Below are positions 15,189 to 57,863 of a stretch of DNA of 64,000 nt, one piece after another. Position 1 is the stretch's first letter, and every line of letters begins with the position of its first letter. The notes beneath the pieces were generated by a model, which ran no database searches, was not told the origin of the DNA, and saw only the letters and a program-made list of their open reading frames with translations. Origin of the DNA: Diphasiastrum complanatum (taxonomy: Eukaryota; Streptophyta; Lycopodiopsida; Lycopodiales; Lycopodiaceae); NCBI GenBank assembly GCA_029204225.1, contig CM055095.1, positions 68,841,039 to 68,905,038 on the forward strand, given 5' to 3'. Position numbers and translations under genes: made by a program.

Positions 15189-15200
15189 TGGTAACAGAGC

Positions 15201-17190: not shown

Positions 17191-17273
17191 TGGTGTGTCT
17201 TGATTGCTAGGGGCAATAGACAAGGTAGACTTTACAAGCTTGATGCATTTGTTATGTCTAAAAGAGGAATAAA

Positions 17274-17811: not shown

Positions 17812-17832
17812 AGTAGATCAAAAGGTTCTATC

Positions 17833-20890: not shown

Positions 20891-21095
20891 TTATTGGAAG
20901 ATCAAGATGTTGATCTTGAATCGCTTCATCAACACCAAGAGACAAGTAGCAATTGGAAGCTAGTCAAAAGCATCAAAGGGGAGCCACATGGAAAAATCAT
21001 TTTGGATCTGTTTTTAAGGTCCTTGAGGGTTCAAGTAAGGTTCTTGAGGGTTCAAGTAAGGTTTTTGGAGGAAGTGTCATTTTACTCTACCTTAC

Positions 21096-21818
21096 TTGTT
21101 TAATCTCATGTATGAACATTGTCATGTCAATGTGTTGGAATTGTCAAAATTCAATGAAACTAGTTCCATAGTCTTGCATCCTTTGGATCTTGGAGATGGA
21201 ATAGTTATCATTGCTGGTTTTTATGATCAAGTACATGCATTCATTCAAATCTTGAAAGATATTGAGGTGGTCAATATGTTTACTTTTGAGCAAAGTTCAA
21301 GATCTAGCATCCTAGTGTTGGCAAATTGGCAAATTGTTGACAATGTAGGATCAAGGTTTGTATGCAAATATTGTGGAGATACTTCAAGTATTTCAAGTTC
21401 AGGTTTTGCTCATTCAAATGCAGCAGAGAACACATCATTTTGGCATTCATTCACTCAAGGGCTTTCATGGATTGGAGATCTACAAAGGCAAGGTGGTGAT
21501 GGAGGTTCATTCATGGAGATACATGGTGCATTCACTATGGGCATAGTGGAATGTGGAGGAGGCATGCAAACATTTGTTGGTTACTTTCACTTACAACTTG
21601 TTTCAATGTTGTTTTACAAAGATTCAAAGGTGGATGCATGGAGGAATCCTTTCATTATGATTCTATATTCTTTTACATGTATCTTGTTCACCATTCTATG
21701 TAAAATTGATGTAAGAAATAGTGAAGCATCCTATATGGACACTATTATCTATATCATTGTTATGTTGTACTTCATATTGTACATATTAGAACACTTGAGA
21801 AGAGATCTATTATCATGA
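21096..21818 (+). CDS. 240-codon ORF of unknown function near the 3' LTR
   Basis: Open from 21096 to 21818. It starts MFNLMYEHCHVNVLELSKFN and includes IVLHPLDLGDGIVIIAGFYD and CKYCGDTSSISSSG. It ends with two hydrophobic runs (PFIMILYSFTCILFTILC and IIYIIVMLYFILYILEHL), which look like membrane segments. The polypurine tract and 3' LTR follow 66 bp later, the position where an env-like or accessory ORF would sit. I do not recognise the family and do not call it an envelope gene. Confidence 0.4.
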   Translation: MFNLMYEHCHVNVLELSKFNETSSIVLHPLDLGDGIVIIAGFYDQVHAFIQILKDIEVVNMFTFEQSSRSSILVLANWQIVDNVGSRFVCKYCGDTSSISSSGFAHSNAAENTSFWHSFTQGLSWIGDLQRQGGDGGSFMEIHGAFTMGIVECGGGMQTFVGYFHLQLVSMLFYKDSKVDAWRNPFIMILYSFTCILFTILCKIDVRNSEASYMDTIIYIIVMLYFILYILEHLRRDLLS

Positions 21819-21884
21819 TGGAGATCATTCTTAGGTTGGATCAAAGTAGTGTTGTAAAATTAGCAAGCTAAGTTGAAGAGGGAG

Positions 21885-22538
21885 TGTGAAAACTGTCAAC
21901 ATTTCCTAGCTAGTTTGAGGCCTAAATTGGCAATTTTTGTACATAGTTTTGGATCTAAGTTTTCACACGTGTGAAAGAGGCCTATATACTCTTATTTTAG
22001 TATATATTTCATATTGAAGAAGTCTCAAACTTTAGGATCTTTAAAATGACACCAAAATAATGTTATTTGGACATATACGCCAAAATTGGCTATTTTAGGC
22101 TACTGGTGTCCTAAAATTAGGTCCTAAGTTCTAGAGAGAGGAGAGAGAGTCATCTCTCTTACCTATATTAGGCTGAAATTCGTGGAGAACAGGTTGGAGA
22201 AACTTATTATATTGTTGAGAGAGATCAATAAATCATTGTCACAGTTTCTTCCTCCATTGAGAGCATTGCTTTGTGTATTGTCTTCAAGCTTTTGTGTATG
22301 ATCTTAAGAGGTTTTCAAAAGTGGTAGCTGTTGTTGTAGGGCTGGTATGCTGTTGTTTTTGGCTTTCATCAGTACCTTTTATTAGTTTCTTTTGTCTCTT
22401 GAATGCTTTGTCAAGTTCATGTGTATCAAAGGTAGCATTAGGATGCTTTGCCATTTCTAGCTTTTGTAGTTTGTTGTGCAAAGATCTTAGCCAAGTATTT
22501 TGGGAGTTTGGATCCATTCAAGATCCACTTTTTTCACA
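21885..22538 (+). repeat. 3' LTR of the TR-GAG-like element
   Basis: Begins TGTGAAAA right after the purine tract and ends TTTTTTCACA. It matches the 5' LTR along its length, including the CACACGTGTG palindrome and the CTTCCTCCATTGAG block. Confidence 0.85.
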
Positions 22539-23189
22539 TATTTTTGAGTTGCATTGAACATTTGGATCAAAGAACAAACTAAGCATGAGGTACTTTTCAT
22601 TCCTAAATTACTTAATGCACATAGATTACTTTTCATTTCTATATTTTATTGCATTACTTTATGTGCATTATGAATGACAATACTTTATTGCATTGCTTTA
22701 TGCACATCATAAATTAGATTTGTATATGTAATATTGATTTTTGTTTTTGCACATGGTTTTGAATTCTTAGGAAGTTATTACGTCAATCCACATCTCAAAA
22801 TTCGACATTGCAATTTTTGAAAAAAACATTGCACATACAAAAGCAATGGCAATATAGCACGATCATTTGCAATAATAATATATTCATAATATCAATCATT
22901 GTATTACAAAATTGGTGCTTTAATTTCGCATGAGTCTCTTTAAATCTAACATCAACTAAAAACCTAATCAACTAAATTGGTATTTCGACTTTAATACTTT
23001 ATAAAAATTCTATTGACTTCAAGATTCATATTTTTTGTATCGTGACGATAATGCTTAGTTTTGTTTAGAAATGCTAGGTTCAAATGCACACACTCACCAC
23101 TCATGACTTGGATTTCCCTCAAGAATCCAACCACACTTGGCTGAGTTTGTCTGATAACATTTCGCCAACAATACTGGTTTTTAGTATTT
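22539..23189. other. AT-rich sequence, nothing recognised
   Basis: About 650 bp with no ORF and no clear repeat apart from short direct repeats around 22600-22690 (GCATTACTTTATGTGCAT and GCATTGCTTTATGCACAT). Confidence 0.5.
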
Positions 23190-29377: not shown

Positions 29378-30000
29378 CTATTCCCAAAAGTCATCAAGGT
29401 CATTGACATCTTTGGGCTTTTTGGGAGGAGCCTCAGTAGAAACAACGACAATATCTTCCACGGTTTCCTCTACAATTACAACATTGTAATTTTGAACTAG
29501 TGCATCTGCAAACTCTCCTGTGTCACCCACTTTTCCGCTAGCGGGAGGTTGTGGTTCTTTTGACAGTGGAATTACAGAGTCTTCGTCAGATTCTGTAGAC
29601 TTTCCTACTTCAGCTAATTCATCCGACAAAACTAAGATAGACTTCATTCACATTTTTATAAATTCTACCAAGCTAGAATCTAATTCTACAACAGCAACAT
29701 GTCTGCCTTTTTGCATAGCGCATGCACTTGTAGTGCCGCTACCGCTAAACAAATCCAAAACCCAATCTGATGTGTGTGAAAACATTTTAACAAGATGATT
29801 AATTAATTGTTGTGGCTTTTGATAAGGACAAGACACAGAACTTGTCATCAGATTTTTCACCTTCTTTGTTACTGTTGGAAATTGAAACAAGTTCCCAAAG
29901 CTGGTAAGTTCGGTGGTGTTATAGTGCAGTATCGAACATTTGTCATCTAGTGAATAATAACCAATGGCTATGTATTCAATCTTGTTGCACAATCGTGCAC

Positions 30001-30160
30001 CGCCAGCATTGTGAACATTGTTGGGCTTGTATCTACAAAAAAAAAAAAGTACATTATTATTTTAAACAATGATCTATGCTAAGCATAGACTATTTAAAAA
30101 TTAAAACAAATAAAGTTAAGTTTTAAAAAAATTAAAGACATACCATACAGCATTTTCAAT
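30001..30160 (-). other. Intron of the methyltransferase gene
   Basis: On the minus strand a donor GTATGTC follows RIENAVW (about 30155). A poly-T tract and acceptor TTGTAG precede the exon starting YKPNNVHNAGGARLCNKIEY (about 30037). With this junction the shared codon reads TGA where TGG would be expected, so either the junction is slightly different or the codon has mutated. Confidence 0.5.
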
Positions 30161-31522: not shown

Positions 31523-32907
31523 TGATGGGGCAAGGGAGATAGAAGAACACGAACGGAGAAAAGAGCAAGGATATTGCGAAATAGCTCTCCCGTTACAATC
31601 AGCTACTAGATGCAAAAAAACAGTCTAATAGAAAGCTTATGCTAAGTATAATCACAGCTTTAAGTGTTCTAATTGTCCAACAGAATTTTAAAACTTAATT
31701 CATACTCACAAAAACAAGAGTACAATCCACCGAAGAGATTAGAAATGGTTTGTGTGTGGTATTACTAAAAAATGCATTCAATATGAAGTTTAGTTTTGAA
31801 ATAGATTGAAATAGGCGTCAAAGACAACCATCGTTTGATCAAAAACTAAGGAGTCATAGACGTATATGTTCTGATCAGAGTGAGTGAACAAATGTTATCA
31901 AACAACAATAAAGTGCATTCAATCACAACAAGCATTCATCTAGGTTATACATAGATAGAAAAGCAAGTTGCTGCTATATTACACTGAAGCACAATAAATT
32001 AGCAATTACAACCAAAATGGTGACATAACTGGGAGGCTCAAATAATACATCTCATGGAAGGAGCTTTAAGTAATCTATGCTGGGATGATTTAATTATAGA
32101 TTGCATCCATGCATTAACTACATTAAATGTTTGTCACCTAATTAGGTAAGCCGTTGTACTTGGAAATATATGGCTTTTGTGACAAATGTACATTGTGTAT
32201 ACTGTCAACGAATTAAAAATGTTGACACAGACGAGGATGTCGCAAATTCTCTCACTTCGCATTTTACGTGAAGTGGTTTTCTCTCACTTTGCAAATTTCG
32301 AGAAGGGTTGGGATCGTCCTTCGTTCAAAATAGACGACCTTCACTTTTTCTCTCGCTTCAGGTTTTTCGTGAAAAAGTCGAAGGCGCCCTAAGCAGTTCA
32401 AGTCTTGAAGTAGATGACCTTCGTAAATTTTCTCTTTCTTTTCATTTCACGAAAAAGCCGAAGGTGCCCTAAACTAGTTGAACTTTGAACTGTGCCTAAG
32501 TGTCGCATTTTGGGAAAATGTAAAAAAGGCGAAGCTATTGCAAAATAGTTTAAACTGTTGAAGTATGCTAGTTTTGCATTTCGAGAAAATGCAAAAAAGA
32601 CAAAACTGTCGCGAACATAGCTTATTTTTACAGACTGTCACGACACTTAGAGTATTTTTGCAGACTATCACGAAAGTAATGTATTTCTGCAGACTTGTTC
32701 TAAATGCTAATTATGTGAAAGTCCTTGAAGATGGCCAAGTCTTCAATGACTTCAAATTATTGAACTTAACATCGGAACTTGAAATTATAATAGGATTGGT
32801 TACCCTTTGCTGGAGATCAGCCAGAAGCCCGTTGTAGACGTTCTTCAAATAAATTGGCTGTCTGAGTTGTAATTCCAAAGAGACAACTATGGGCTTATTT
32901 TCCAACA
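31523..32907 (-). repeat. 3' LTR of copia D with a 370-bp insert
   Basis: Left edge TGATGG and right edge CCAACA. Positions 31523-31626 and 31997-32470 match the right LTR at 35992-36552. The 370 bp between them do not. The insert is flanked by TA on both sides. The distal part (32490-32700) holds repeated CGCATTTT/GAAAATGC words shared with 5450-5900 and 8470-8960. Confidence 0.7.
31627..31996. other. Insert of unknown origin within the copia D LTR
   Basis: Absent from the other LTR copy. It contains TTATGCTAAGTATAAT, a weak form of the palindrome common in the neighbouring gene, and on the minus strand an exon-like piece followed by a GTGAGTATG donor-like sequence. It shows no terminal inverted repeats, so either a small transposon or gene-derived sequence is possible. 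Confidence 0.4.
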
Positions 32908-33666
32908 GTCCCCCTTAAGATCACAGTTGGTGCCTTGGTATCTTCGTCAGGTTCAACATGTTGAAAGACTTTTGATGCTTGATCTTGGGAAGCGGTTTGG
33001 TGAAGATGTCTGTGACCATTTCTGTTGTGGAGCAGTATTGAAAGAATCACTTGCCCTGAGAAAACTTTTTCTCGAATGAAATGATACTGGATTTCTATGT
33101 GCTTGGATTTGCCATGAAATCTGGGATTCAGTGACAGTGAAATACAGCTCAAGTTGTTACACAAAATGGTGGTAGCATTGAACTGAGTGTGATGTAAGTC
33201 GTGAAGTAACAACCTGATCCATATAGCCTATTTTGAAGCTTGACATGCTGCGATGTACTCTGCCTCGGTCGAAGAAAGTACAACTGATTTCTGCTTCCTT
33301 GAGCTCCACAAAATTGGTCCCCCTGCCAAATAGAAACATAACCCGGAGGTAGATTTTCTAGTAGAGACTGTTCCTCCTCAATCGCAATCGGAGTAGCCTT
33401 GCAGGACGAGTGGGTCAATAGCATTTCCATCATAACATAAAATGTGATCTAAGCTTTTCTAGAATATATCTCATCACTCTCTTTAATGCTTTCCAACGAG
33501 AGATCCTAGGATTAGACATGAATTGATTTAACGTGCTAACAGTGTACGCTAAATATGGTCTAGTACATAGCATTGCATACATTAAAGATCCGATTAGTGA
33601 ATGATAAGAGTACTTCGCTAAGACGAGTACTTCACTATCAGTCTCAGCACAAGAAGTTTTAGTCAA
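32908..33666 (-). pseudogene. Copia D end of RT and RNase H
   Basis: Frames at 33666-33430 (YSYHSLIGSLMYAMLCTRPY; LNQFMSNPRISRWKALKRVM) and 33212-32895 (HTQFNATTILCNNLSCISLS; HGKSKHIEIQYHFIREKV). These are the conserved end of RT and the C-terminal half of RNase H. They join the integrase C-terminus with no RT palm between, so the catalytic YVDD region is deleted. Confidence 0.8.
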
Positions 33667-34900
33667 TACGTAGCTGTAGCTACAGGTTCTGTAGAAGAAA
33701 CACTATCGTTGGAAGATTCCATGCTACGTAAAATAGGATGAAATGACATAGCATCGTTTATCGATGGTTGTTTGAAATCATAGTATGTATGTTCTTGAAA
33801 CATTACATCCCTAGAGACAAATACTACATTAGTGGATGGATCATAAAGTTTATAAGTTTTATGTTTATCAGGATAGCCAATGAAAATACATTTATTTGTC
33901 CTATGATCCAGTTTCTTCCTAAGCTGTTTAGGAATGTGAACAAAACATATACAACCAAAAAATTTTAAATGGATGACACTGGGCTTGTGCCCATGCCAAA
34001 CTTCATGAGGAGTTTTGTTGTTGACCTTTGGTGCTGGATCTATTCTGCGCGTAACAGGTTGTGGCTGTAGCTTCTGTCAATAACTTCGTAGGTAGGTGTG
34101 CTTGATGTAGCATGGATCTGGCTGAGTTGAGAAGAGTTCGATTCTTCCTTTCTGCAATCTCGTTTTGTTGAGGTGAATAGGAAGTGGTGAACTGTCTTCT
34201 AATGCCATGTTCAGCCATGTAGTTGGACATCTCATTAGAGAGGGTATTCGTCGCCACCATTAGTTCGGAGTGCCTTCACTTTTGTAGATGTTTGTGTCTC
34301 AACCATGGCCTTGAATCTCTTGAAGCATTCAAAGGCTTCAGATTTGTGCTTAATAAACATGGTTGTAGACCATCTAGAATAATCATCTATGAAAGTGATA
34401 AAATAGATTGCATCTCCTAAGGACGGAGTTGGCATTGCACCACGGAGATTACTATGTACAAGATCCAATACATGCTTTGTTTTGATGGAATGTTTGGAAA
34501 CTTGTTTCTAGAGTCTTTGTCATAGACGCATGATTCACAAAAGATAGATTTCCTATCTAATGAAGAAGGGAAATACAATCCATCAACTAAGTTATTACAA
34601 CACATATAGGAAAGTGATCCTATATTCACGTGTCCAAATTGACTATGCCACAAAATAGCATTATCGTTTACATGAATTAGAGAGTACATAAAGATTTCTG
34701 ACTCTAGTGCATGTAGTTAGATTAGTATCTTCCTCGAATATTGTACATTGCTCAGATGAGAAAGTAAGAGTGTAGCCCTCATCAGTTATCTTAGAAACTA
34801 ACAACACGCTCTTTGAAAACTGAGGTACATGAAGAACATTTGTGACATAAATAGAAAGATCATTGTTGAAAGTGATCTTCACTGTTCCTTTGCCTTCCAT
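33667..34900 (-). pseudogene. Copia D protease end and integrase
   Basis: The minus strand reads VLHVPQFSKSVLLVSKITDE (34850-34780), GAG-pre-integrase (ILWHSQFGHVNIGSLSYMCC) and CESCVYDKDSRNKFP. The integrase core follows: FITFIDDYSRWSTTMFIKHK, KALRTNGGDEY (where NGGDEY replaces DNGGEY) and SPQQNEIAERKNRTLLNSAR. The C-terminal GYPDKHKTYKLYDPSTNVVF lies near 33800-33870. The altered NGGDEY changes a catalytic region. Frame breaks at about 34240 and 34420. Confidence 0.8.
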
Positions 34901-35085
34901 GCATATGGTGCATGAATCTCCAAGGTAGATGAATTAATCTCTACTATAAGCTGCATACTCGGTAAACCATTCCTTGCGAGAGGTCATGTGTTGGGTAGCA
35001 CCACTGTCCAGGTACCAGCTATCACAGTCTTCGTTGTTGTTGTTATAAGCCATTAACAAATGTGTATCTTGCTCCTTGAATTTTG

Positions 35086-35924
35086 TCATGTTGGAGGAGT
35101 CTGGCTGCTGCTACTGTTGCTTCTTCGTCTCGTTGTAGATCCAGATACGACACTCGTTGATGTTGTGATTGGCTCTCTTGCAATATCTGCAGAAAAACTT
35201 CTTTCGTGATCCACTATTCTCGCCTTGAGTATGAGGCTTCTGATGTTGCTATTGCAGTTGATTCTTGCCCTTGGAGTAGTCTTTCTTCTTCGTGTATGAA
35301 GCCATAGATTTGTCTTTGATAGACAGGCTGCTAGTCTTTCTGTGCATTTCTTCTTGAAGTAGGTGACCAATCACCTTTTGAACAGTGAGGTTGGGTTGTG
35401 TGGAGATCATCACCACAAAGTGCTCATATGACTTTGGAAGAGAAGAAAGCAAGGTCATAACAACGGCATCATCATCTTGAATAGCACATCCTACAACTGA
35501 TAACTGATCCAATAAAGACTTGAAGCTGTTGATGTGAGAAGTGATGGTAGTAGAATCAGACATGCTAAGAGTACAGAACTTCCTTCTCAGATGTAATCTA
35601 GTGGCTACATCATGAGTCTCATAGAGATTTGATAATAAATCTAATTCATCCTTAGAGGTTTTGCATGTGGTAACATGAATTATTTGAGAGTTAGCCAGAT
35701 TGAGTGTGATACATGCTAAGGCCTTCTGATCTTTGATCTTCCATGCCTTCGCTTGCACCATCTTCTGGTTTCAAGTCAGCACCTTCTACTACATCCAAAG
35801 ATCTCTATCTATCAACATCATCCGGAGTTTTTAACTTCTAGATGTAGAAGTTAGAACCATTGAACTTGTCAATGATTCTAGCTTTGCTGGATGATGAAGA
35901 TGAAGAGCTACCTATATGAGACAT
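35086..35924 (-). pseudogene. Copia D gag with CCHC knuckle
   Basis: An ATG at 35924 opens a serine-rich leader (MSHIGSSSSSSSSKARII) and DKFNGSNFYI, followed by a TAG where Trp is expected. The main frame (35761-35249) holds WKIKDQKALACITLNLANSQ and LDQLSVVGCAIQDDDAVVMT. The knuckle FCRYCKRANHNINEC follows at about 35155-35195 with normal CX2CX4HX4C spacing. Confidence 0.8.
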
Positions 35925-35976
35925 ACTAACAGTAATACAAATAGAACATACTTAATCTCTCGATTTATATGAGCTA

Positions 35977-35988
35977 CCTCTGATACCA
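35977..35988 (-). promoter_or_regulatory. Copia D primer-binding site
   Basis: CCTCTGATACCA, one base from the complement of TGGTATCAGAGC, three bases from the right LTR. Confidence 0.75.
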
Positions 35989-35991
35989 ATC

Positions 35992-36552
35992 TGATGGAGC
36001 AAGGGAGATAGAAGAATGTAAACGAAGAAGAGAGCAGGAATTTTGCAGAACAACTCTCCCGTTACAATCAGCTGCTAGATGCAAAAACAGTCTAGCAATT
36101 ACAACCAAAATGGTGGCATAACTGGGAGGCTCAAATAATACATCTCATGGATGGAGCTTCAAGTAATCTGTGCTGGGATGATCTATTTATAGGTTGCATC
36201 CATGTATTAACTATATTAAATGTTTGTCACCTAATTAGGTAAGCCGTTGTACTTGGAAGTATATGGCTTTTGTGACAATTGTACATAGTGTATACTATCA
36301 ACGAATTAGGAATGTTGACGCGGACGAGGACGTCGCAAATTCTCTCACTTCGCATTTTACGTGAAGTGGTTTTCTCTCACTTCGCAAATTTCGGGAAGTG
36401 GCTGGGAACGTCCTTCGTTCAAAATAGACGACCTTCGCTTTTTCTCTCTCTTCGGATTTTTCGGGAAAAAGTCGAAGGTGCCCTAAAGCAGTTCAAGCCT
36501 TGAAGTAGATGACCTTCGAGAATTTTTTCACATTTCGCGAAAAAGCCAAAGG
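35992..36552 (-). repeat. 5' LTR of copia D, truncated
   Basis: Matches the left LTR from TGATGG to the AAAAAGCC(G/A)AAGG word at about 36552. The final few hundred bases seen in the left copy are missing and new sequence begins. Confidence 0.75.
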
Positions 36553-46569: not shown

Positions 46570-47690
46570 TCTCCTATTTGAATAAGAAAAAGTTTGAGCT
46601 CCACATTGTTGCTCCCCATCCCCCTCCCTATGTTTTCACCTTAGGCATTTCATTTGTGCCCCATGGTACAGTCACACGGCATTTGGGCTTCAATGTTTTG
46701 TCTATAAGCTAGTCTTTTAGGACTCTCACTTCATGTCATTTACGTCCATGGTTCTAGTTGTCCACCATATTTTAGTTACCTATTCGGTCTTTTTCCCTTC
46801 CATCTTTGTTGCCCCCAAAGCCCTCCACAATCCCCTCCCTACTCTCCTTCGTCGCTTCCTTTGGGCTGGCAAACATCCCCTTGTTTCTTGGTCGGTCTGC
46901 GTGGCCACCATGGTTGATGGCATCCTCGACATTCTTCGTGCTTCGTCGCATCTCCTCCTTGGTCCACCCTTCTCAACACTGGCACTCCCTTCTTCTCATC
47001 TATATGACTTATGTTGTTGCCATTTGTCCTCTCCTTTCCTAAGCTGCTTTCCTTTGGTTGCTCCTTCCACTTCAAAGGACCCTTTTGTGAAATATTACTT
47101 TAACCTTCATGGAGTTCGTCACCTCCTTTGTTGGTCCCCTCTTTTATGTCCATCCGCGCCTGTCTCTTGCCCTGTCTCGCAAAGGCCTCTCACCATGCTT
47201 CATCAGCTCATCCTTGTTCCCCCTTGACATCTCCTCTCGTCTTCTTCTCTAACTACTAATGAGCACTCTCTAGTCGATTATGCTTTCTTGTCTATTCTTG
47301 GCTTCCGTATTTCCCATGACTCAACCATCCTAGATGGCTAGGAGCCTTTTCTTGTGCTCCTTGGCTATCATGCTCCTCACTACCATCATTATCCTTCTCT
47401 CCTTCCAGACTTTTTCAATACTCGTTGGTCTGACTTTGACTCCTTTCCCATTTGGCACAAAAGATTTCTCACTGCCCGTTCTCTTCTGGTAGGAAAACTT
47501 AGATATTTTGCTTACCACATCCTAAACAAGTCTTTTTCTCTCTTGGCCAAATGGCCCTTCCTTTCTGATCACCTCTGCCCAGTTTGCCAACTAGAGGAGG
47601 AGCACCTATTCTTTCATTATCGCTGGGATCTATGCATTAGAGAAAATATGGGCCCCAAAGAGGGCCCTATAAGAAATGCTATGTAGGATA
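46570..47690 (+). pseudogene. LINE (L1-type) ORF2 3' end
   Basis: Reads GISFVPHGTVTRHLGFNV, LRRFLWAGKHPLVSWSV and a zinc-binding reverse-transcriptase tail (47505-47640). That tail has KLRYFAYHILNKSFSLLAKW, DHLCPVCQLEEEHLFFHY, the zf-RVT pattern of plant LINEs. The RT palm itself is not seen. Frames are broken and there is no clear poly(A) tail. The protein would copy LINE RNA at the target site. Confidence 0.75.
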
Positions 47691-47839
47691 GAGAAAAATA
47701 ACTATAAAGTAGTTATAGTATCATTTTCTAACTTCTTTATGCATCTGCCCGCACTCCTTTCCATGTAAATGAATGCACCTTAGTTTAGTCACATCAAACT
47801 TCACTGGTGCTTAGCCAAAGTTAGAATATAATTTTCAAA

Positions 47840-48600
47840 ATGATGAGATATTCCCTCCCAAAAGTTGGAAACACTCAAAAATTTGAATTAGGAGTGATCT
47901 CTGAAACAAAGTCTACGCCATCTCTATCTCCAGGGTCAAACAAGTGTTTAGCACCATCACTATCTCTAGCAGAGTTAGCGCCATCTCCAACTTTGTTATT
48001 GTCATTGTGTTGTTTGTTACTATACTATTGTATTGATGACAAAGCTTTATCATCTTCATGTGGTTTCAATCACCAGAATATGCTCCGCTCAAGACAAGAA
48101 ATTTAAAGCAACCCAAATTGACAACTTCTAATATGGTCCGATACAGAGAGGAAAAGCTAAAGCATGTAGATTTATGGTCATCGGGAACATTGTATCCTAT
48201 TGATCCATGTTCATTGCAACATCCGGATCTTCATTCAGTGAGTCAGTTAATAATCTATATGTGTCATGGGAAAAATGGTCTTTTGGGTTACTGTGAGAAT
48301 TTGATGCTCTATGGGAATGCACATTCAATGCAAAGAATACATTATTTGGAAAAGAAATCAAGGAAAATATCAAAGGAGTGCGAAGAAAAATCTACAAAGT
48401 TGAAAACTTGTTTGGATGAAAATGAGATGCTCAAGAAGGAGATCGCAAGGTTGAAATCTTCTTTGCATATGAGATAAAAACTGCATTTCAATCCATGCGT
48501 ATCTCATATTTGTCTCTTGTTAAAGATATGGATGTGCTCAACAGAAAGGTCCAAAGCAACAAGAGAAAAAGACTGTAACCAAGGATATATGTGATCTATT
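47840..48600 (+). pseudogene. First exons of the transposase-like gene
   Basis: Frames at 47840-48106 and 48058-48477. The second contains LDFG-free but coding-like text: DLWSSGTLYPIDPCSLQHPD, SQLIIYMCHGKNGLLGYC and a coiled coil (KSRKISKECEEKSTKLKTCL). A continuation after a frame change reads TKDICDLLSKGGHRKRQIRA to about 48645. It is placed and oriented as the 5' part of the gene continued at 48810. Confidence 0.45.
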
Positions 48601-48809
48601 ATCCAAAGGAGGTCATAGAAAAAGACAAATCCGTGCATTTAAGTAGGTTATAGCTTATTTGGTATTAAATATTGCTTGAACTTTTTGATTCATCTATAAT
48701 CTCTTGTTTTATTATTTATTCATTTCAACTTTCTATTGATTTTCTTATTATACTGCTGTGAATACTATGAGTGTCAAAATTTCTACTGACATTTTCATGA
48801 ACATTATGT

Positions 48810-50829
48810 TTGCAATGCGGATCAGCATTTGTTGTTGAAGACCATTTGGCTGATGAGATTTTGATTGGAAACTCACTAGGCTCTATCTTGACTTCTAAAT
48901 CTATGAAATCAATGTTAAACAATAACAAAATGAAAAAGATTAAGGCTTTAGTTATTGATAGCATTATGAATGAAGTTGAAAAAATATTAGACACAACATT
49001 GCTTCAAGGGGCATGTGACTTTTCTAGCATTAGTAGAGAAGCATATGCAACAATGTTTAAGATGATAAAGGAGGCATTTGCACATGTAAGTATTAAAAAG
49101 TTTCTAATCCCACGACCATTTCATCTTTTAAGAAAAAAAGACATGTTAAACCAAGGTATGCAAACAATAGTTGGTAATCCATCTCATATCAATGAAGTGT
49201 ATTGCTCAAAAGGAGAAAGTCTAGCATATAACAATTCCAATAATTTATTTATTGACATTAATCAGTTACTAACATTCATCATAAATTTTTACGGTATTAC
49301 AAATGAGAATGTCAATAACAAGTTGATAGTTGTTCTCAAGTTAGATGAGTCTGAAATCATAAAAAGACAAAAAATAGAAAGAGTCAATCTCACGATAATA
49401 AATGGAGCACTTTCAAATTCAGAAGACTTAGAAGGCCTCAATTTCAGGGTTCAATCAGAAAATGATATCTCGTGGTTGGCAGCATTTCAGGTATAGCAGT
49501 TCCTATCAATAGGGATAATCATTTTAATATGGATTTCATTTGGAAAATCTTCTCTTTGTTAATATTATGAGGCTAATCATGTTTTTGTATTCTCTTATAG
49601 GTGATGAAAGAAGACCATGACATTCTCTCGTGGATATTTAATAGAACATCATATCATGCCACCATAAAAAATCACATGGAGGGAGTTCCACTCAATATTC
49701 CTGGAATTGGCACTTTCAACATTGAATGGCATTTAACAGGAGATGTGAAGATATTAAAATATATGTTCAATATATCACATGGCACTAACTCTAAACACCC
49801 TTGTCTGTACTGCATGAAGACAGCAAAAGACATGACAAGGAGTACAGGAATATAAAGAGATCAAGAAGATCCTAATTGGAAACATGTACTACTGATTCCT
49901 CTTCAAAATGTTCATATCTGTACATTGCATGCGAAGGTGCGTATTATAGAAAAATAATCTATTTTCACATCTTGTTTGCATGGAATTTCGAGTCAGAGGC
50001 CTCTGCGAAGGAAGCTATTTCTAGATTAGAGGATGTGTTGTCCAAAGAAGGCTTACATAAAGGCCACATTAAAATTAAAAAAAAATGACAAGCTATCAGG
50101 TAAAACAAGAAATATTCCATGCAAGCTGAGCATTTGAGGACCTAAAGCTCGAATATTTTTATCAAATTATTCTGGCAAACAATCCAAGATTCAATACACA
50201 ATTTGGAAAGAAAATATTGCAACAACTCAAGATTTCGAAGAAGAAGGTTCTACTCGTATACACAAAGTAGAAGTTTCAAAAAAATTAGACAACATGGTGA
50301 AATACTTGAGAAAAGATAAATTTTCAAATACTGATGTACAAACGATACAGAAAACAACCAGTGAATTTGTGGATGTAGTTCAAAGTGCATGGGGTTTAGA
50401 TCATATAACACATTATATGGTAAAATTTCGATGTTACACTACTATAGACAAATATGTGCAATTAAATTAGATACTTTTGGTACTGATTTAGACTATGTTT
50501 TTATGACATGCAACACATATTACGACATCATTCGACATTCTTTGCAAAAAATAGTGAAAGTCTTAGCATTTGGTCATCGCAAGGAATGGAAAAATCTCAT
50601 TGAGCAAGAGCGGCATTTCATAAAAGTACACAACATGGCGGGACTAGCACAAAAAACAGTTATATACTACAACTTTTCCAATGATTTTATAGAAGAATCC
50701 AAATTCATCATAATACAAAATCGACGGATTATAAAAAATTTCAAAAAGCATGCAAATTTATACAAGCCAATAGGCAATCGACACACAATAAAATTTTGTA
50801 TATTAGATAAAAATATTTACAAATTATAA
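48810..50829 (+). pseudogene. Transposase-like gene, spliced, decayed
   Basis: Exon 48810-49490 ends LAAFQ. A 110-bp intron (GTATAG...TTATAG, 49491-49600) keeps the frame into VMKEDHDILSWIF. Candidate acidic residues and zinc ligands are VVLKLDESEIIKRQK and EWHLTGDVKILKYMF, then HPCLYCMKTAK. After two stops come HVLLIPLQNVHICTLHAK and RHFIKVHNMAG. The aspartate-rich blocks plus the CxxC knuckle and later histidines resemble the core of DDE-type transposases with a zinc insertion. I cannot name the family. At least three frame breaks occur. Confidence 0.5.
49491..49600 (+). other. Intron of the transposase-like gene
   Basis: Starts GTATAGCAG directly after a CAG codon and ends TCTCTTATAG directly before GTG ATG AAA. 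Removal is phase 0 and keeps an open frame of more than 300 codons across both exons. Confidence 0.75.
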
Positions 50830-50843
50830 TTGAACAGTATCCA

Positions 50844-52155
50844 CTATGCTTTCGATACTTTCTCTAGTGAAAGTTGCAACTTAGAATCATGCAACAATTT
50901 GCTTCTTTCGTATGGATCCAACAACTCATAGTTTTCATGCTTACTCAGATCAACGTAAGCAGCATACAATACAAAATGAGATGATCTGAACATGAAATTC
51001 ACTGGTCCATATATTAAAATTTTAACCGCAATGGTTTTCTTTACAAAAATAATTTTATGCACCTTATTAAAATTATGTCCTCCAATAAAATGAGACAGTG
51101 CCTTGATTGTCATAATCATAGTCTCACCATGTTGATGAAATTTTGAATGGACAACACTTATCTCATTATTTTTGAAGAACTTCAGATAGTGTCTCAATGC
51201 ATGATCTCTTGAAAATTCTCAAGCAGAAGATCTTTGTCCTCCTCGACGAATTGTGAAATCATCAAGGAAAATTGTTTTCTGAAATGGGAAAAAAAAAAAA
51301 TAAAGTAAGCTTTAGTATAGTCTGACATAATGAATCTACTAGTACATGATAAAATACAAAAACTTACGCATTCAGCTTTGTCTTCCCTGATTACTGTCTC
51401 TCCATCAATATTATGTCCACCTTTCTATGTCAATATTGTTGGTGAATAGACATTTGGTTGTGGAAAACCAAGTTGACTTTGGATTCTGAAAAACTCCTCC
51501 TCAAAAGATAGATCACCTTCTTTGTTGCACGTTTCCTCCACAGCCATTTTCAAGCAATCTTTCCTTGAATAAAACTTATCATTATGTACATCGTCAATAC
51601 CAGAGAGAAGATCATCAGTATCAAAATCAATTATATCCAAAAATTCATCAAGCTCTTTGTTCAAAATGCAAAGATTCTCAACTTTAGTGAAATAAAAAAG
51701 ATCCGATATATTTGATATTATCAAAAAAGAATTATTATCTATATTATAAGTAGGCAAAGTGATCAAAGATGTATCAGAAGGAGAAAGGATAGTGGGTGTT
51801 TTAGGGCCTATAAATGATGTCCTATTTCGAGCAGGATCAAAATCTGAACAATCATCTAAATTAATGCTTGTATCAATAAAAAAAAGTATGTATATCTACA
51901 ATGTTTGACTTTTTAAACTTTGTACCATTGGAAGAAGCATTTTCAGAAGTGGAAGTCCCAGCTTCCGAATCGTCAGAAATATTTAACAAAAGAAAAAACA
52001 AATGCAGACCGAAAATCAACAAATCTACATTTTTTATTGTGAATTGGACACTCGTCTACAGACTTGAAATCATTATGTAACTTGGTGAATATTCTGTCAA
52101 GCTTAGTTTTATAGCTATGCTTGTCGAGTGCCACCAAATCTTGATAATGAATCAT
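50844..52155 (-). pseudogene. Unknown minus-strand gene, at least two exons
   Basis: An acidic exon (about 51870-51368) reads DFDPARNRTSFIGPKTPTIL and ELDEFLDIIDFDTDDLLSGI. One TAG interrupts it near 51425, and it ends at a GTAAGTTTT donor. After a T-rich acceptor (CCCATTTCAG, about 51279) the next exon reads KTIFLDDFTIRRGG. It continues RHYLKFFKNNEISVVHSKFH, FIGGHNFNKVHKIIFV and SSHFVLYAAYVDLSKHENYE to 50844. A short 5' piece may be 52155-51973 (DECPIHNKKCRF). I do not recognise the family. It is convergent with the transposase-like gene. Confidence 0.45.
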
Positions 52156-52437
52156 ATCCTTTTATTCTGAGATCTGAATAACGGAGTATTGAACAGAGAC
52201 TTAAATCTGAGATATATCTCAGAAAATGTCTCCACACCAAGAATAACAACGGTATCGGTATCGATACCAGAACTGAATATCGGTTTCTTTTATGAAAATA
52301 ATTTGTGTATATCTTGCGCTCAAAACCGATATTCAATTCTGGTATCGATCTCAAACGCTCTCTGATCGCAATCTTTTTTTGTTTTCATTCCATGCGCTTT
52401 TGTTCAAAGTTTATTTTTTTGATTTTTTTTTTTGAGA

Positions 52438-52915
52438 ATGATGGCCAGGACCAAATCCACTGCCCGTGCCATAACCACTGTACAGCCATCCCATGCCCGT
52501 GTTTTTCCTGGTACTGGCCGTAGACGTGGCAAGAAGCAGGTCTGGATGAGGGAGATTAGAAAACTCCAGAACTGAACTATTGATCCCTATAGCTCCTTTC
52601 AGTCGATCTATCATAAATGTCACTCTGTCACTTGGGCTAAATTTTTGTTCTGTCATGACAGCCATGCAAGCCTTACAAGGTGCTGCAGAGGATTTTTTGT
52701 CCCAATTTCTTGAGGATACCTATCTTTTGGTAGTACATGGTAAGCATGTCACCATCATGCCAAAAGATTTCATCATTCTCAGAAGACTTCGGGACCGTTT
52801 TTCTGGTCTGCATGTTGATAACGCCAGCACCTCCAGAGACCTGCTCTGGATAGAACCAACTTGCCGACTACCTCTAGCTGGAAAAGGAAGCAACCTATTC
52901 CCAAGAAAGCTCTAG
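52438..52915 (+). pseudogene. Divergent histone H3-like domain
   Basis: ATG at 52441 starts MARTKSTARA, the canonical H3 N-terminus. A short tail (GRRRGKKQVW) leads to MREIRKLQ, the alpha-N helix. A frame change at about 52570 (five bases fewer than H3 needs) restores TELLI, then IAPFSR in place of KLPFQR. The core reads MTAMQALQGAAEDFLSQ and VTIMPKD, a hallmark of H3, then LRRLRDR. The PF-to-ALQ distance equals canonical H3, not the longer loop of CENP-A/CENH3. Histone H3 packs DNA in nucleosomes. Lysines 9 and 27 of the usual tail are not in place. Confidence 0.8.
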
Positions 52916-52916
52916 A

Positions 52917-53370
52917 GTTATCCTGGCCAAGAGACCCCGGATCGCCTTGAGCTCTGAGTCAGATGCTGGAGAATCTGATTCAGATCGAGAATCGTCACCC
53001 CTTCCTTCTCCTGTTATTCGTTTAGCTCCTTAGCATGTTTCTTCACCAAAAGTGTTGATTACCCAAGAGGAGCTCAACAAAATAACAAAAAATTCTGTAA
53101 ATATTGTATCTACTCTTCTTTTTTCTCCTGTACATAATCTTTTTGTTAGAATTCCATATGATCCTGCCCAAGTTTATTTTGATTCTGAACATTATAACCA
53201 GTACGAGGCCTTCCTAGGTAATAAAATTGATCTTCTCAGCAATTTTTTTGATTTTTTTTTTCCAAATTTATGTAAAAGCTTTAGATTAGGTCCCAAATTT
53301 TGTGTCGAGCTGAAAGATAAAACATCAGAACTTTCAAAATATAATAGTAGAAGCCGAAGGATTTTTTTTG
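52917..53370 (+). pseudogene. Basic/acidic linker between H3-like and Ulp1-like parts
   Basis: Frame 0 reads VILAKRPRIALSSESDAGES and DSDRESSPLPSP, a basic nuclear-signal-like patch followed by an acidic serine stretch. A TAG at about 53031 interrupts it. Then come VLITQEELNKITKNSVNIVS and IPYDPAQVYFDSEHYNQYEA. A GTAATA donor-like site lies at 53218. It may form a linker of a single long protein, but the frame changes stop me proving this. Confidence 0.4.
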
Positions 53371-53373
53371 CAG

Positions 53374-54364
53374 AATAGTATTAGTTTCGATTCTCATGGT
53401 ATAGTTTTTGTTCTTAGTCCATTTTTCATGGAGGCAATAAAGGCAAAAGAAGCCGATTTTGAGAAGGCTGTATATTATATCGAATGCAGTCCTGTGGCAA
53501 AATTTTATTTGATTCCATATGAAAATAAGTAAGGATTGCTCTTTTGTTTTTGTTGTTTTAATATGGATTGTTGCATGTGGCATTGCTTTAATAAGTACGG
53601 ATTGCTTTAATAAGTTTGGATTTATCGATATTTGTATTTTGGTTGTTGCAGTCGGCATTGGAGCTTGAACATTATATTAGTAAAGATAAATAAGGAGGGA
53701 GTATCAAATTTCTATGTATAAAATTAAACTCAGCTGCAAATACACATAGAGAATTTGATTCTCTACTTTATAATGTCGTTCAGAAAATACCGACAACGGC
53801 AACCTCAATTGGAGAGATAACCATAGATCTCTCAAGGTATATTCAATTTATCTTTGATATACATGTATTCTTTTTTAGTTCAAATCTATCATCATAGCAT
53901 AAATAAATTTTCTATCATAATATTACTAATTTTCGTTCAATATATGTAGTGTGTATAGCAAAAGAACTCTTTTAGTTGTGCATGGTTCGTCCTGTACAAT
54001 ATGAAGTTATTTTTTGAGTGGTATACTTTACAAGTGGATGTAGATATTGAAAAGGTAATATTCTATTCATTTGTAGATCCTTTCATTCTAATTCATATTT
54101 CTTTACTATCATTGTTTGTAATTTGCTGATTCTCGTGTTTTGTGATGACATTTCACTCTTGAGTCGTATACTCCTGACGATGTATATAGATTTCGACAAG
54201 AGTTGATCAAAACCTATGCTCAGAACGGTGTAAGCGTTGCACCTAAGATCGAGGGCCCTAAAAAACAAGCTACTCCTGCCTTAATAGCCTTTCAGATTGT
54301 TCAGGATGTAGATCTTATTATATATGATAAAAAAGGAATAGAAGTCCTTCCTAATACAGAGTAA
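53374..54364 (+). pseudogene. Ulp1/C48-type cysteine protease, multi-exon
   Basis: Four exons can be traced. 53374-53528 (acceptor TTTTGCAG; SPFFMEAIKAKEADFEKAVY) ends at a GTAAGG donor. 53652-53836 carries NRHWSLNIILVKINK, the catalytic His, and after a frame change near 53715 EFDSLLYNVVQKIP, the catalytic Asp. 53959-54054 carries QKNSFSCAWFVLYN, the Gln and catalytic Cys. 54164-54364 reads SYTPDDVYRFRQELIKTYAQ. The order H-D-Q-C is that of SUMO-protease-type enzymes, which cut SUMO from proteins and are common in plant and fungal DNA transposons. The splice into the Cys exon is not in phase. Confidence 0.65.
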
Positions 54365-54720
54365 GACGATATTATAGTAGAGAGTCCTCTTGTCTTAAAA
54401 GGCATAGAGGCTCTTCCCGAAATAGAGACAAGATTATAGAAGGAGCTATTCCCTTATCAGTTCCTAATACTAATAAAGAAAGTATAGAAAAATTGACTAA
54501 ATAGAGATCTATTTGTAAATAGAGATACATCAAAAAAAAAAAAAAAAGATACATGTAAACAACCCGTTTATGAATTTTTTTTTATTGATATCAATATAGA
54601 TTCTAACAATCAGGTTGTGTCCATAGTGTAATACTGGAATGCAATTTTCTATATTGATAAAAAGACATGATGATTGGCATGTATTTGCTGATAGTGAATC
54701 TTAGTGATCTTCCATAAGTT
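54365..54720. other. AT-rich spacer between convergent genes
   Basis: Follows the protease stop. It contains a frame remnant (SPLVLKGIEALPEIETRL) just after the stop codon and a run of A at 54532-54546. No further gene seen. Confidence 0.4.
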
Positions 54721-54739
54721 GGATTGTTTCGCCAATATC

Positions 54740-55348
54740 TCTGCATTTGATCTCGAGCTCATGTCCTTTACGTACCTACATAAAACTAATACAAAGTGAG
54801 TTACAATTAGTACAAAGATTGTATTAGAAAGTTTTGATTGAAACTATTCATAAAGGATCAAGTGTTTACAGTTACTTACGAGTTTACCATTGAAAATGAA
54901 TCTGAAGTCTGAAAGTACATCATCTTGTAGGAGCAATAGTTCCCACCTGATGTAATTTAGACTCCAATTTTCTTCCACCTCAACACACGTCGAAACGGCA
55001 TCATTGTATATAGTTTTAATGTTTTTTCATTTTGAATGTCCACTGGCTTCCAAGTCTTGATCAAGTGGCACCCATTTACCTTTATTTTTTTTTCATCTTT
55101 GATAATGGAAGCATAAGCTCAACATTTGTTTTTCAATTTGATAATGGAAGCACATGAAAGACATTTTAATTCTGCATTCTATTTCTCCATCTGATCTTTT
55201 TGTCCCAACCTTCATCCATAAGTTCAGATAATAAACTATTTGATAAATTTTTGCATACAAACATCGTTAAGGTTTTGTGTACATTGACACTTGAAAAGAA
55301 ATCCACAAATATATTCAAGGAAATAAACCAACTCAATCTGACTGTTTT
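54740..55348 (-). pseudogene. Downstream continuation of the Tudor-knot-like gene
   Basis: In the same frame as the exon ending at 55349, and past its TAA, the minus strand stays open for about 60 codons (VRLSWFISLNIFVDFFSS; LLSELMDEGWDKKIRWR). A shifted frame then reads KVNGCHLIKTWKPVDIQNEK near 55020-55080. The TAA may therefore be a nonsense mutation in a longer protein. Confidence 0.35.
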
Positions 55349-56067
55349 TTATTTTGTGCTCATTTTTAATGAATTTTTTACATCATTATATATCTTGCAA
55401 CGAAATGATTCTGAAACTGTAGCATCTGGTGCAATCCATTCATCACTTTCAAAACTAGGTAATGGAATTTGGACTATTTGTCCAAAATTTTCTTTTGTAT
55501 CAAGAATGTACATTGATTCGTAAAAAAAAATCTCACTATCAACTAGATTTTTTGCAGTTCTACCTCGATATTGCAGTTGTCCAATATCAGTGTGAATAAC
55601 ATCTAGCACATCTGCTAAAGATCCATTGGGCTCCCATTCATTTATGTTGGATGGATATAAATCTACAAGAGAAAAATGATCAGATTGGCAAGTTTACTAT
55701 TAGATATTAATGAATGACAAAAATCTAACTATCAAAAATATCAATACTCACAATTGTTTTTTTTGTGATCTTGACGGTTGAATCCTTGCACATTTATCTC
55801 TGAATGCATATGTACATATTGGACTAGAATTTCAAAAATAGATTTTCCTCTTGATGATGTTCTGAAATCCAAAATTCTGGCCTTCCAATAAGATCGAAAT
55901 GATAGTTTTGATCTTTTGCTTTTTCGAAATGCTCCTCTTGATGATGGATGCATCAAAACCCAAGAGTTTTTTGAATATTTTCTTGGCACCCATAATCCAT
56001 TATCATCTTTCTCGTTGAATAGAAGCACAGAGTCGATTGAGGAGCACGACTTCCTTGATGGCACCAT
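55349..56067 (-). CDS. Two-exon gene with Tudor-knot-like segment
   Basis: Exon 1 (56067-55752) starts at an ATG (MVPSRKSCSSIDSVLLFN) and has a basic patch (FRKSKRSKLSFRSYWKARIL). DFRTSSRGKSIFEILVQYVH follows, a pattern like chromo-barrel/Tudor-knot domains (W-K-A-R-I-L-D-x-R ... I-L-V-Q-Y). A GTGAGT donor and TTCTCTTGTAG acceptor bracket an 89-bp intron. Exon 2 (55662-55349) reads YLYPSNINEWEPNGSLADVL and IPLPSFESDEWIAPDATV. The splice leaves an uninterrupted 209-codon frame. Such domains read histone marks. The protein may be truncated. Confidence 0.45.
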
Positions 56068-56069
56068 TC

Positions 56070-56587
56070 GTAATGTGCATGCAAAAATCTAAAACACTGA
56101 ACTATGAATCTGAAAATTTGCGTAGACAAAAAGCCATGAATCTGAAAAAATGTGTTGGCATAAATTTGAAACACTGATCTGTTTGGCGCCACAAATTAAC
56201 TCTGGTTAACCATGTTAACCATGATTTGACAATGCATATACATTAATGGTACATCGATTTTCTCATCTCAACCATCTGTCATATTCATTTTCAATATTTT
56301 TGGGTCTCTTCGGGTAGTGATGAGCTGGAAGGGCAGGCCTCATCAACCAGTAGCATTTCCACATGTTGCCCGACGAAATAGCAATATATTTTAATAGTTT
56401 TTATTTTATTTATATTTGGAAAATTCTACGTTACGTAGAACCCCGATTTCAAGGTTTCAATTGGTCCACATGGCAACGAAATAAGAAAAATAAAAAATAA
56501 AGCATCTTTTTCAAAGGCCCTCTTTGGGCTCTAAGTTTCTCTAATGGTTGGAGGTGGCACATCTTCTTCGTCGTTGGCAATTCCCCT
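56070..56587. other. Non-coding; dispersed repeat fragment
   Basis: No gene. GTTAACCATGTTAACCATG at about 56210 is a short direct repeat. TTCTACGTTACGTAGAACCCC with GATTTCAAGGTTTCAATTGG (56425-56465) resembles 8340-8390. Confidence 0.45.
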
Positions 56588-57582: not shown

Positions 57583-57585
57583 CAA

Positions 57586-57686
57586 TGGAAGGGGCCGGGC
57601 AGAGGCCATTCTGCCCGGTACGGGCCTCGCCTAAAAAAATTCTTGAAAACCATGAGGGCAGAATGGCCTCTGCCCGGCTCCTTCCA
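57586..57686. repeat. 31-bp near-perfect hairpin
   Basis: The left arm 57586-57616 and right arm 57656-57686 pair along 31 positions. The only non-Watson-Crick pair would be a G:U in RNA. The loop is 39 bases. It begins four bases after the MITE-like element. Confidence 0.8.
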
Positions 57687-57863
57687 TAATACATCATATT
57701 TATAATGAAAGTCAGATCTACTCACAATTAAAATCGTTATCGGCTTTTTGAATAACTTTATCACTTTTTCAATATTCTCACAAACTTCAAGGTGATATAC
57801 AACATCAAGGTAAACCAAACATTTGAATTAGATGCATGGTGACAAGAGTACTTTTTCAATGAC

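What the first reader, a model, noticed from the sequence alone, without database searches (positions are those of the whole stretch)
52438..54364. Histone H3-like domain followed by an Ulp1-type protease
An H3 N-terminus (MARTKSTARA) and H3 core (VTIMPKD) are followed on the same strand by a basic/acidic linker and an H-D-Q-C cysteine protease. I know of no described plant gene or transposon with this pairing. Ulp1-like proteases are known cargo of DNA transposons, but an H3-like partner is not known to me. If they were one protein, it could target chromatin and cut SUMO there.
Basis: partly seen in the sequence, partly recalled or inferred. Interest (0 to 1): 0.88.

Follow-up and report, generated by a model that had tools for sequence, protein, structure and literature searches.

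The report
Transposon gene fusing histone and protease
The stretch is a decayed copy of a plant jumping gene that carries one protein made of a histone H3-like part joined to a SUMO-cutting-type protease, and less damaged copies in the same genome show that the two parts are read as one.

Summary
Window 52441-54364 encodes an H3-like histone domain, a basic/acidic linker and a Ulp1-type (C48) protease over four exons. All four H-D-Q-C codons are legible, but this copy is dead: frameshifts, stops and a lost splice acceptor.

The gene lies in an 8,912-bp terminal-inverted-repeat transposon (47635-56546) with three other genes. The 32-base left end of this family matches 1,274 places in the 1.74-Gb host genome (reversed-pattern control 0).

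The fusion is a family trait. Of 112 matches to the 372-aa first exon, five span it without a stop. One natural copy stays open through four exons, 591 aa. Two relatives 35-40% identical keep the same order and pass Pfam's C48 cut-off. Histone and protease exons show signs of purifying selection.

Closest precedents: H3-like genes in a fungal hAT transposon, and Ulp1 genes in plant Vandal transposons. The H3-Ulp1 fusion itself appeared in none of the listings of nine literature searches.

Best mechanism (inferred): an anti-silencing protein that brings a SUMO protease to chromatin through a histone lacking lysine 9.

The parts
47635..56546 (.). Whole DNA transposon copy, 8,912 bp
   Evidence: Homology to other copies starts at 47634-47636 in four left-end loci and stops at 56546-56550 in eight right-end loci; TIRs at both ends
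47635..47680 (+). Left terminal inverted repeat, begins CATTAGAGAAAATATGGG
   Evidence: TIR alignment score 38 versus maximum -3 in 2000 random pairs; the 32-base family sequence matches 1,274 places at up to 3 mismatches, reversed-pattern control 0
56500..56546 (-). Right terminal inverted repeat, ends TTTCTCTAATG
48801..50826 (+). Decayed spliced gene, transposase-like by eye (KLDES ... GDVKIL ... CLYC ... LHAKVRI); superfamily not assigned
   Evidence: Reading frames; no Pfam transposase match; a piece of it recurs upstream of the H3 domain in the diverged copy L048, 53% identity over 66 aa
50847..52161 (-). Decayed gene A, unknown, with a GT-AG intron at about 51285-51370 (by eye)
   Evidence: Open frames; no Pfam family above cut-off
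52239..52286 (.). Deletion junction: 11 other loci have about 0.86-1.5 kb here, between gene A and the H3 gene
   Evidence: Gap in homology between 52237-52239 and 52284-52296 in L009, L010, L012, L014, L015, L016, L019, L020, L021, L022, L026
52260..52349 (.). 27-bp near-perfect inverted repeat upstream of the H3 gene
52441..53528 (+). Exon 1: H3-like domain, linker, first half of protease; several frame breaks and one TAG
   Evidence: counterpart uninterrupted in L009 and L039
52441..52801 (+). H3-like domain (MARTKSTARA ... VTIMPKD ... RRLRDRF); small deletion near 52574
   Evidence: Pfam Histone E 3.7e-19 read with X; end coordinate
52802..53060 (+). Linker with basic clusters (WKRKQPIPKK, KRPR) and acidic/serine stretch; its open stretch 52878-53378 has no ATG
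53061..53528 (+). First half of Ulp1-like domain up to LIPYEN; frame break near 53340
53529..53651 (+). Intron 1 (AA|GTAAGG ... TTGCAG|T), position and phase kept in relatives
53652..53836 (+). Exon 2: RHWSLNIIL (His 53656-53658), Asn 53727-53729, Asp 53757-53759; frame breaks
53837..53949 (+). Intron 2 (GTATAT ... TATGTAG)
53950..54054 (+). Exon 3: CV*QKNSFSCAWFVLYN; Gln 53959-53961, Cys 53977-53979; TAG at 53956-53958
54152..54364 (+). Exon 4: YTPDDVYRFRQEL, to an early stop; homologous coding continues to about 54503; acceptor AG mutated in this copy
54700..56088 (-). Decayed gene B, unknown
   Evidence: no Pfam family above cut-off

Best explanation
SHOWN: the locus is a decayed copy of a high-copy, four-gene DNA transposon whose third gene encodes a single protein. 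That protein has an H3-like tail and histone fold, a nuclear-signal-like linker, and a Ulp1/C48 cysteine protease. INFERRED: the protein is a transposon anti-silencing factor. The H3-like part carries it to chromatin, by entering nucleosomes or by binding histone chaperones and tail readers. The tail keeps Lys4 but has lost Lys9, so it cannot take the plant silencing mark there. The tethered protease removes SUMO, or a related modifier, from silencing proteins nearby, which keeps the transposon's genes expressed. Identity and fusion about 0.95; anti-silencing mechanism about 0.4; actual nucleosome incorporation about 0.3.
For: Identity: Histone E 5.5e-19 and C48 E 0.021 in the intact L039 protein. 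In diverged relatives C48 E is 7.3e-7 (L048) and 2.6e-6 (L049), above cut-off, with Histone E 1.5e-25 in L049. The three-subfamily protease profile finds yeast Ulp1 first in the PDB, E 1.3e-4. hhalign score is 42.7 against at most 25.8 in 300 column shuffles, and probability 95% with three subfamilies. Fusion: one frame in L009, L039, L049; 112 and 119 listed matches to two subfamilies' first exon. Selection: dN/dS 0.43 (H3), 0.39 (protease part of exon 1), 0.42 (exons 2-3), against neutral simulations with medians 0.75-0.79 and minima 0.51-0.56. Tail: Lys4 kept in 24 of 24 readable copies, Lys9 replaced by Ala in 25 of 26, Ser10 by Ile in 26 of 26 (28 rows, some near-duplicates); Lys9 is Leu in L049. 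Analogy: Ulp1-bearing VANC genes of Arabidopsis Vandal elements are linked to hypomethylation of related elements (PMC13317346, passages).
Against: No expression, protein or activity data. The Ulp1 Asp position holds Asn or Lys, so activity is not certain. The first family's own protease stays below Pfam's cut-off (L039 15.1 bits, window 18.8 bits). L048 and L049, which pass it, each have a break in the protease part. The linker (dN/dS 0.72) lies within its neutral range; exon 4 gave 1.00 but 0.48, so it is undecided. Arg83 of the L1 loop, a DNA contact (recalled), is Arg in only 16 of 27 copies, and Arg116 in 16 of 27 (many changes look like CpG decay). The SUMO substrate is assumed from the family and the modifier could differ.
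Confidence: 0.5

Rival explanations
1. Self-processing or transposition role: the protease works on transposon-encoded proteins, or cuts itself from the H3 part, and the H3-like domain binds or compacts transposon DNA or chooses the target site, with no role in host silencing.
For: The gene travels with three other element genes. Ulp1-fold proteases are maturation enzymes in some mobile elements and viruses (recalled). Histone and protease exons are under constraint but the linker is near neutral, as expected if it is only a tether or a cut site.
Against: A role in target choice would not need a protease. No capsid or polymerase gene was recognised by Pfam in the element. I did not look for a cleavage site.
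Confidence: 0.25
2. Histone decoy: the H3-like part acts outside nucleosomes, titrating H3 chaperones, Lys4 readers or Lys9 methyltransferases, and the protease adds stability or removes SUMO from those partners.
For: Tail residues 1-8 are largely kept while the rest of the tail is lost and Lys9 is replaced. The H3 identity is only about 43-49%.
Against: The whole histone fold through helix 3 is kept and constrained, more than a tail decoy needs.
Confidence: 0.2
3. Neutral passenger: a captured H3-protease gene carried along without function.
For: Most listed copies are broken: only 5 of 112 matches span exon 1 without a stop, and 1 of 28 aligned copies is unbroken over exons 1-3. Gene capture by plant transposons is common (PMC13317346, passages).
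Against: dN/dS of the H3 and protease exons lies below all 200 neutral simulations each. His, Gln and Cys are kept in subfamilies 35-40% identical.
Confidence: 0.05
4. Two separate neighbouring genes, or a chance insertion of an H3 gene in this copy only.
For: In the window the two parts lie in different frames.
Against: One uninterrupted frame in L009, L039 and L049; no ATG in the linker's open stretch in the window; 112 listed matches of the same order.
Confidence: 0.02

Closest known systems
H3L gene in a hAT transposon of the fungus Pyrenophora tritici-repentis (PMC3538342; passages read)
   Same: An H3-like gene lies between the TIRs of a multi-gene DNA transposon and is amplified with it; it matches neither canonical H3 nor CenH3 completely.
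   Different: There H3L is a separate gene, with no protease in the passages read, in a hAT element of a fungus with 26 H3L genes. Here it is fused to a Ulp1 domain, the transposase-like gene shows no hAT match in Pfam, and the host is a plant.
Kaonashi / Ulp1-bearing VANC genes of Vandal MULE transposons (PMC13317346, a review; passages read)
   Same: A plant DNA transposon carries a Ulp1-type domain in an accessory gene, with a suggested anti-silencing role.
   Different: No histone domain is mentioned (the word histone does not occur in the review's text). Those are non-TIR MULEs; this element has TIRs and no MULE match in Pfam.
Ulp1 / SENP SUMO proteases (Pfam PF02902, PDB 1euv)
   Same: Start helix, HW box and Q-x6-C box in the same order; Q-to-C spacing as in yeast Ulp1.
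   Different: Asn or Lys in place of the catalytic Asp; fused behind a histone.
Histone H3
   Same: ARTK(Q/S)TAR tail start, full histone fold, VTIMPKD.
   Different: About 43-49% identity for this family; short tail without Lys9 and most other tail lysines; no stop after helix 3 but an extension of more than 300 residues.

Membership tests
Peptidase C48 (Ulp1/SENP) | Profile match above the curated cut-off | tested here: met
   Relatives L048 29.7 and L049 27.9 bits, cut-off 20.7. Not reached by intact L039 (15.1 bits) nor by the window copy read in the right frames (18.8 bits).
Peptidase C48 (Ulp1/SENP) | Catalytic His in an HW box and Cys in Q-x6-C | tested here: met
   His 23 of 25, second Gln 22 of 22, Cys 21 of 22 readable rows, window included (without it 22 of 24, 21 of 21, 20 of 21); invariant in three subfamilies. 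In the window the first Gln of the pair is a TAG.
Peptidase C48 (Ulp1/SENP) | Asp as third catalytic residue | tested here: not met
   Lys at the position aligned to the SENP8 Asp, Asn two residues on; an Asp 10 residues after that Asn is conserved, 24 of 24 rows.
Peptidase C48 (Ulp1/SENP) | Cleaves SUMO or a related modifier | not testable with these tools
   No assay possible.
Histone H3 | Core histone profile match | tested here: met
   E 3.7e-19 (window), 5.5e-19 (L039), 1.5e-25 (L049).
Histone H3 | Conserved tail with Lys4, Lys9, Lys27 | tested here: not met
   Lys4 kept, Lys9 replaced, rest of the tail not alignable by eye.
Histone H3 | Forms nucleosomes | not testable with these tools
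   His113 27 of 27, Asp123 25 of 27 and Arg129 27 of 27 kept, Arg83 16 of 27; position roles are recalled.
CENH3 | Longer loop 1 and sequence nearest to CENH3 | tested here: inconclusive
   Loop 1 has canonical length. The window copy alone is nearest to CENP-A (68.7 versus 63.9 bits), but the three-subfamily profile is nearest to H3.
TIR DNA transposon | Terminal inverted repeats at precise ends shared by dispersed copies | tested here: met
TIR DNA transposon | Target-site duplication | tested here: not met
   No matching flanks in 3 of 3 copies with both ends in hand.
TIR DNA transposon | Recognisable transposase | tested here: inconclusive
   Gene at 48801-50826 looks transposase-like by eye; no Pfam match.
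Vandal/KIU MULE | MULE transposase and no TIRs | tested here: not met
   TIRs present; no MULE match.

The most novel reading that the evidence does not exclude
A transposon lineage has built a chromatin-embedded SUMO protease: a histone H3 variant with Lys4 but no Lys9 that enters nucleosomes and, through its C-terminal Ulp1 domain, strips SUMO from silencing complexes at the element's own chromatin. It would be a self-targeting eraser of silencing, carried by a transposon family with over a thousand left ends in one genome.
Probability: 0.3. Interest if true: 0.93.

Novelty: new variant of a known kind. Interest (0 to 1): 0.82.

Why it matters
Transposons that fight host silencing are known, but here a core-histone fold and a SUMO protease are joined in one mobile gene, kept in the same order through at least three diverged subfamilies. 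It makes testable whether a parasite can change chromatin by supplying its own histone. It also offers a natural design for tethering an enzyme to chromatin, and it suggests that plant genomes hold mobile-element genes that protein databases miss.

Tried and rejected
Separate genes or a one-copy accident: rejected. CENH3 origin: the window copy leaned to CENP-A but the family profile leans to H3, and the tree is weak (73/81); left open. Viral origin: four IMG/VR scans with single sequences gave no relative; the alignment scan gave two contigs with an H3-like protein of at most 129-171 aa, too short for such a fusion. GTDB scans: none, and one small match in a bacterial MAG, not followed. Relatives elsewhere: none at E <= 10 for residues 136-480 among 2650 candidates; H3 search hits shared at most 49% identity among the 120 listed of 3746; of the full-length search I checked the 120 listed of 1096, and none matched the linker-protease part better than E 3.1 in a direct phmmer test. 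These searches used the decayed window copy and word matching, so they do not show absence.

An error of mine, found on checking: I first read exon 3 of the window in the wrong frame and thought the Cys codon lost. The read-throughs carry that misreading; most of the query was the correctly read part. In one search, 5 of 5000 shuffles beat that reading. Read correctly, 0 of 5000 do (15.5 against at most 8.9 bits) and C48 appears at E 0.0016; the PDB still gives no C48 chain.

Transposase class: not found. Target-site duplication: not found. Structure prediction was not run. Supplementary files of papers were not read.

Literature: nine paper searches, listings with titles and abstract starts only (one search showed 20 of 20,613 papers, 20 of 115, 20 of 55), apart from passages of PMC13317346 and PMC3538342. 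None of the listings named an H3-Ulp1 fusion. Only open-licence PubMed Central papers are held there.

Full report
1. What is in the window. At 52441 an ATG opens MARTKSTARAITTV, then an H3-like core to VTIMPKD and RRLRDRF, then a linker with KRPR and an acidic serine stretch, then more coding to 54364. Read with X at the break, the H3 part matches Pfam Histone at E 3.7e-19. H3 and linker lie in different frames in this copy. The linker's open stretch has no ATG and H3 has no stop of its own at its end, which already suggested one protein. At first I read exon 3 in a wrong frame and got no Pfam or PDB match to the family and only a weak shuffle test (5 of 5000 above). Read correctly, with the relatives as guide, C48 appears at E 0.0016, 18.8 bits, still below the cut-off of 20.7, and 0 of 5000 shuffles reach it. 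The PDB search still gives no C48 chain.

2. The genome decides. The window is C4:68841039-68905038 of a 1.74-Gb assembly. I recall that this size and about 23 chromosomes fit the clubmoss Diphasiastrum complanatum; this was not verified. The 77-aa H3 core has 150 scored matches out of 5610 candidates, all at E <= 6.1e-30. With the 372-aa natural exon 1 of the C577 copy as query, 112 matches are listed (110 of 10,425 candidates scored), 73-100% identical. Five cover residues 1-372 without a stop; two of these five, C117 and C10:22.78M, have identical exons 2 and 3 as printed and may be one locus seen twice. Stops are common in the rest, so most copies are dead.

3. Fusion in natural copies. 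In C577 (L009) the frame runs from MMARTK through H3, linker and the first protease half to IPYEN with no break. In C4:40431820-40434220 (L039) all four exons, spliced at GT-AG sites shared with other copies, stay open for 591 aa. Among 28 aligned gene rows, window included and several incomplete, L039 is the only one with no stop, frameshift or missing part in exons 1-3. In L039, Pfam gives Histone 5.5e-19 and, as the only protease family, Peptidase_C48 at 0.021 (0.098 in the whole protein), below its cut-off. PDB search gives SENP8 first at E 0.36.

4. Diverged relatives settle the protease. A CENH3 probe listed 150 matches; I could fetch two of the unfamiliar ones, L048 (C7) and L049 (C6). 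They are 40% and 35% identical to L039 and of the same order. Their protease parts score C48 at 7.3e-7 and 2.6e-6, above the curated cut-off, and L049 scores Histone at 1.5e-25. They read PQQNDSFNCGW and AQQEDGHSCGW, with HW before. Each has a break of its own: L048 a TAG late in exon 1, L049 a frame break in exon 2. A profile of the three finds Ulp1 first in the PDB (E 1.3e-4), then SENP2 and SENP8. hhalign against a four-sequence Ulp1/SENP profile gives score 42.7 for the first family against at most 25.8 in 300 column-shuffled controls, and probability 95% for the three subfamilies. Invariant residues include H377, W378, N401, D411, Q440, Q441 and C447. The L049 subfamily is itself abundant: 119 listed matches (112 of 9,453 candidates scored), 8 of them full length (1-363) without a stop.

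5. The element. Homology between copies begins at 47634-47636 and ends at 56546-56550. The ends are inverted repeats beginning CATTAGAGAAA, scoring 38 against at most -3 in 2000 random pairs. The 32-base left end matches 1,274 places with up to 3 mismatches, and the reversed-pattern control matches none; how many of these are full elements with the H3 gene was not counted. No target-site duplication was seen in 3 of 3 copies with both ends. Four genes lie inside: a transposase-like one, two unknown ones on the other strand, and the H3-protease gene. Copies such as L009, L021, L022 and L026 match the transposase-like region as well as the H3-protease gene. Part of the transposase-like gene also recurs just upstream of H3 in L048 (53% identity over 66 aa). 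No Pfam transposase family matched. The window copy lacks 0.86-1.5 kb found in 11 other loci between gene A and the H3 gene. A 99.9% identical second copy at C4:43.44M extends beyond the right element end, so that pair is a segmental or assembly duplication, not a new insertion.

6. Selection. Across copies dN/dS is 0.43 for H3 (351 pairs), 0.39 for the protease part of exon 1 (325) and 0.42 for exons 2-3 (253). Neutral simulations using the intron substitution spectrum gave medians 0.75-0.79 and minima 0.51-0.56 in 200 runs each. The linker (0.72) is inside its neutral range. Exon 4 gave 1.00 with L039 as frame reference and 0.48 with L009, whose exon 4 is itself frame-broken, so it is undecided. 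An earlier run on 22 rows gave 0.40, 0.62, 0.32 and 0.41 for H3, linker, protease part of exon 1 and exons 2-3. Copies are not independent and the simulation is simple, so this is support, not proof.

7. The tail. In 28 rows (some near-duplicates), Lys4 is kept in 24 of 24 readable copies, Lys9 is Ala in 25 of 26 and Ser10 is Ile in 26 of 26. In L049 the tail starts ARTKQTARL, so Lys9 is Leu. Tail residues recognised by Lys4 enzymes are largely kept while the main plant silencing lysine is lost. His113, Asp123 and Arg129 are kept in 27, 25 and 27 of 27; Arg83 and Arg116 in 16 of 27 each.

8. Mechanism. Steps shown: fusion, multi-copy element, conserved His/Gln/Cys, constraint, tail changes. 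Steps inferred: nuclear entry, chromatin association, SUMO cleavage, anti-silencing. I prefer anti-silencing because histone and SUMO protease both act on silencing, because the tail lacks Lys9, and because a plant transposon gene with a Ulp1 domain is linked to hypomethylation of related copies (PMC13317346, passages). C-terminal fusions of H3 with fluorescent proteins are known to enter nucleosomes (recalled), so the order is workable.

9. Known and new. H3-like cargo in a DNA transposon is known from Pyrenophora tritici-repentis (PMC3538342, passages), and Ulp1 cargo is known in plant MULEs. One protein with both was not named in the listings of nine paper searches, which cover open-licence PubMed Central papers only. 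I therefore file it as a new variant of a known kind, transposons carrying captured chromatin genes, with a domain pairing for which I found no precedent.

Noticed in passing
L042-L047 (C10:47288600, C156:45900, C17:36125550, C12:9675650, C10:2472950, C6:51595150): A second dispersed repeat in the same genome encodes a different H3-like protein with a proline-rich tail; in 5 of 6 fetched copies a stop follows right after the histone fold, and no protease match follows within the fetched stretch. It groups weakly with the window family (73/81).
   Followed up: partly
window 29651-30061 (-): ORF resembling bacterial-type adenine-specific DNA methyltransferases (NCBIfam PRK11524, E 2e-11, below its cut-off) in a plant genome; whether gene, transposon or other piece is unknown.
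   Followed up: no
window 14534-22539 and 31523-36486: Two pairs of long direct repeats (mostly 91-96% alike, one stretch 84%) that look like LTR retrotransposons.
   Followed up: no
L048:1-1107: The N-terminal piece of the transposase-like protein runs in one frame into the H3-like domain, perhaps a deletion derivative.
   Followed up: partly
L050:4923-5309 and L051:4764-5276 (IMG/VR contigs): Short viral proteins with an H3-like histone fold, about 30% identical to the family's H3 part.
   Followed up: partly
window 57585-57687: A 32-bp, 97% inverted repeat, GC-rich, just outside the element.
   Followed up: no
L019:8928-9320: An inverted second copy of about 400 bases of the H3 gene region lies at the right side of this copy, a nested or rearranged element.
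   Followed up: no
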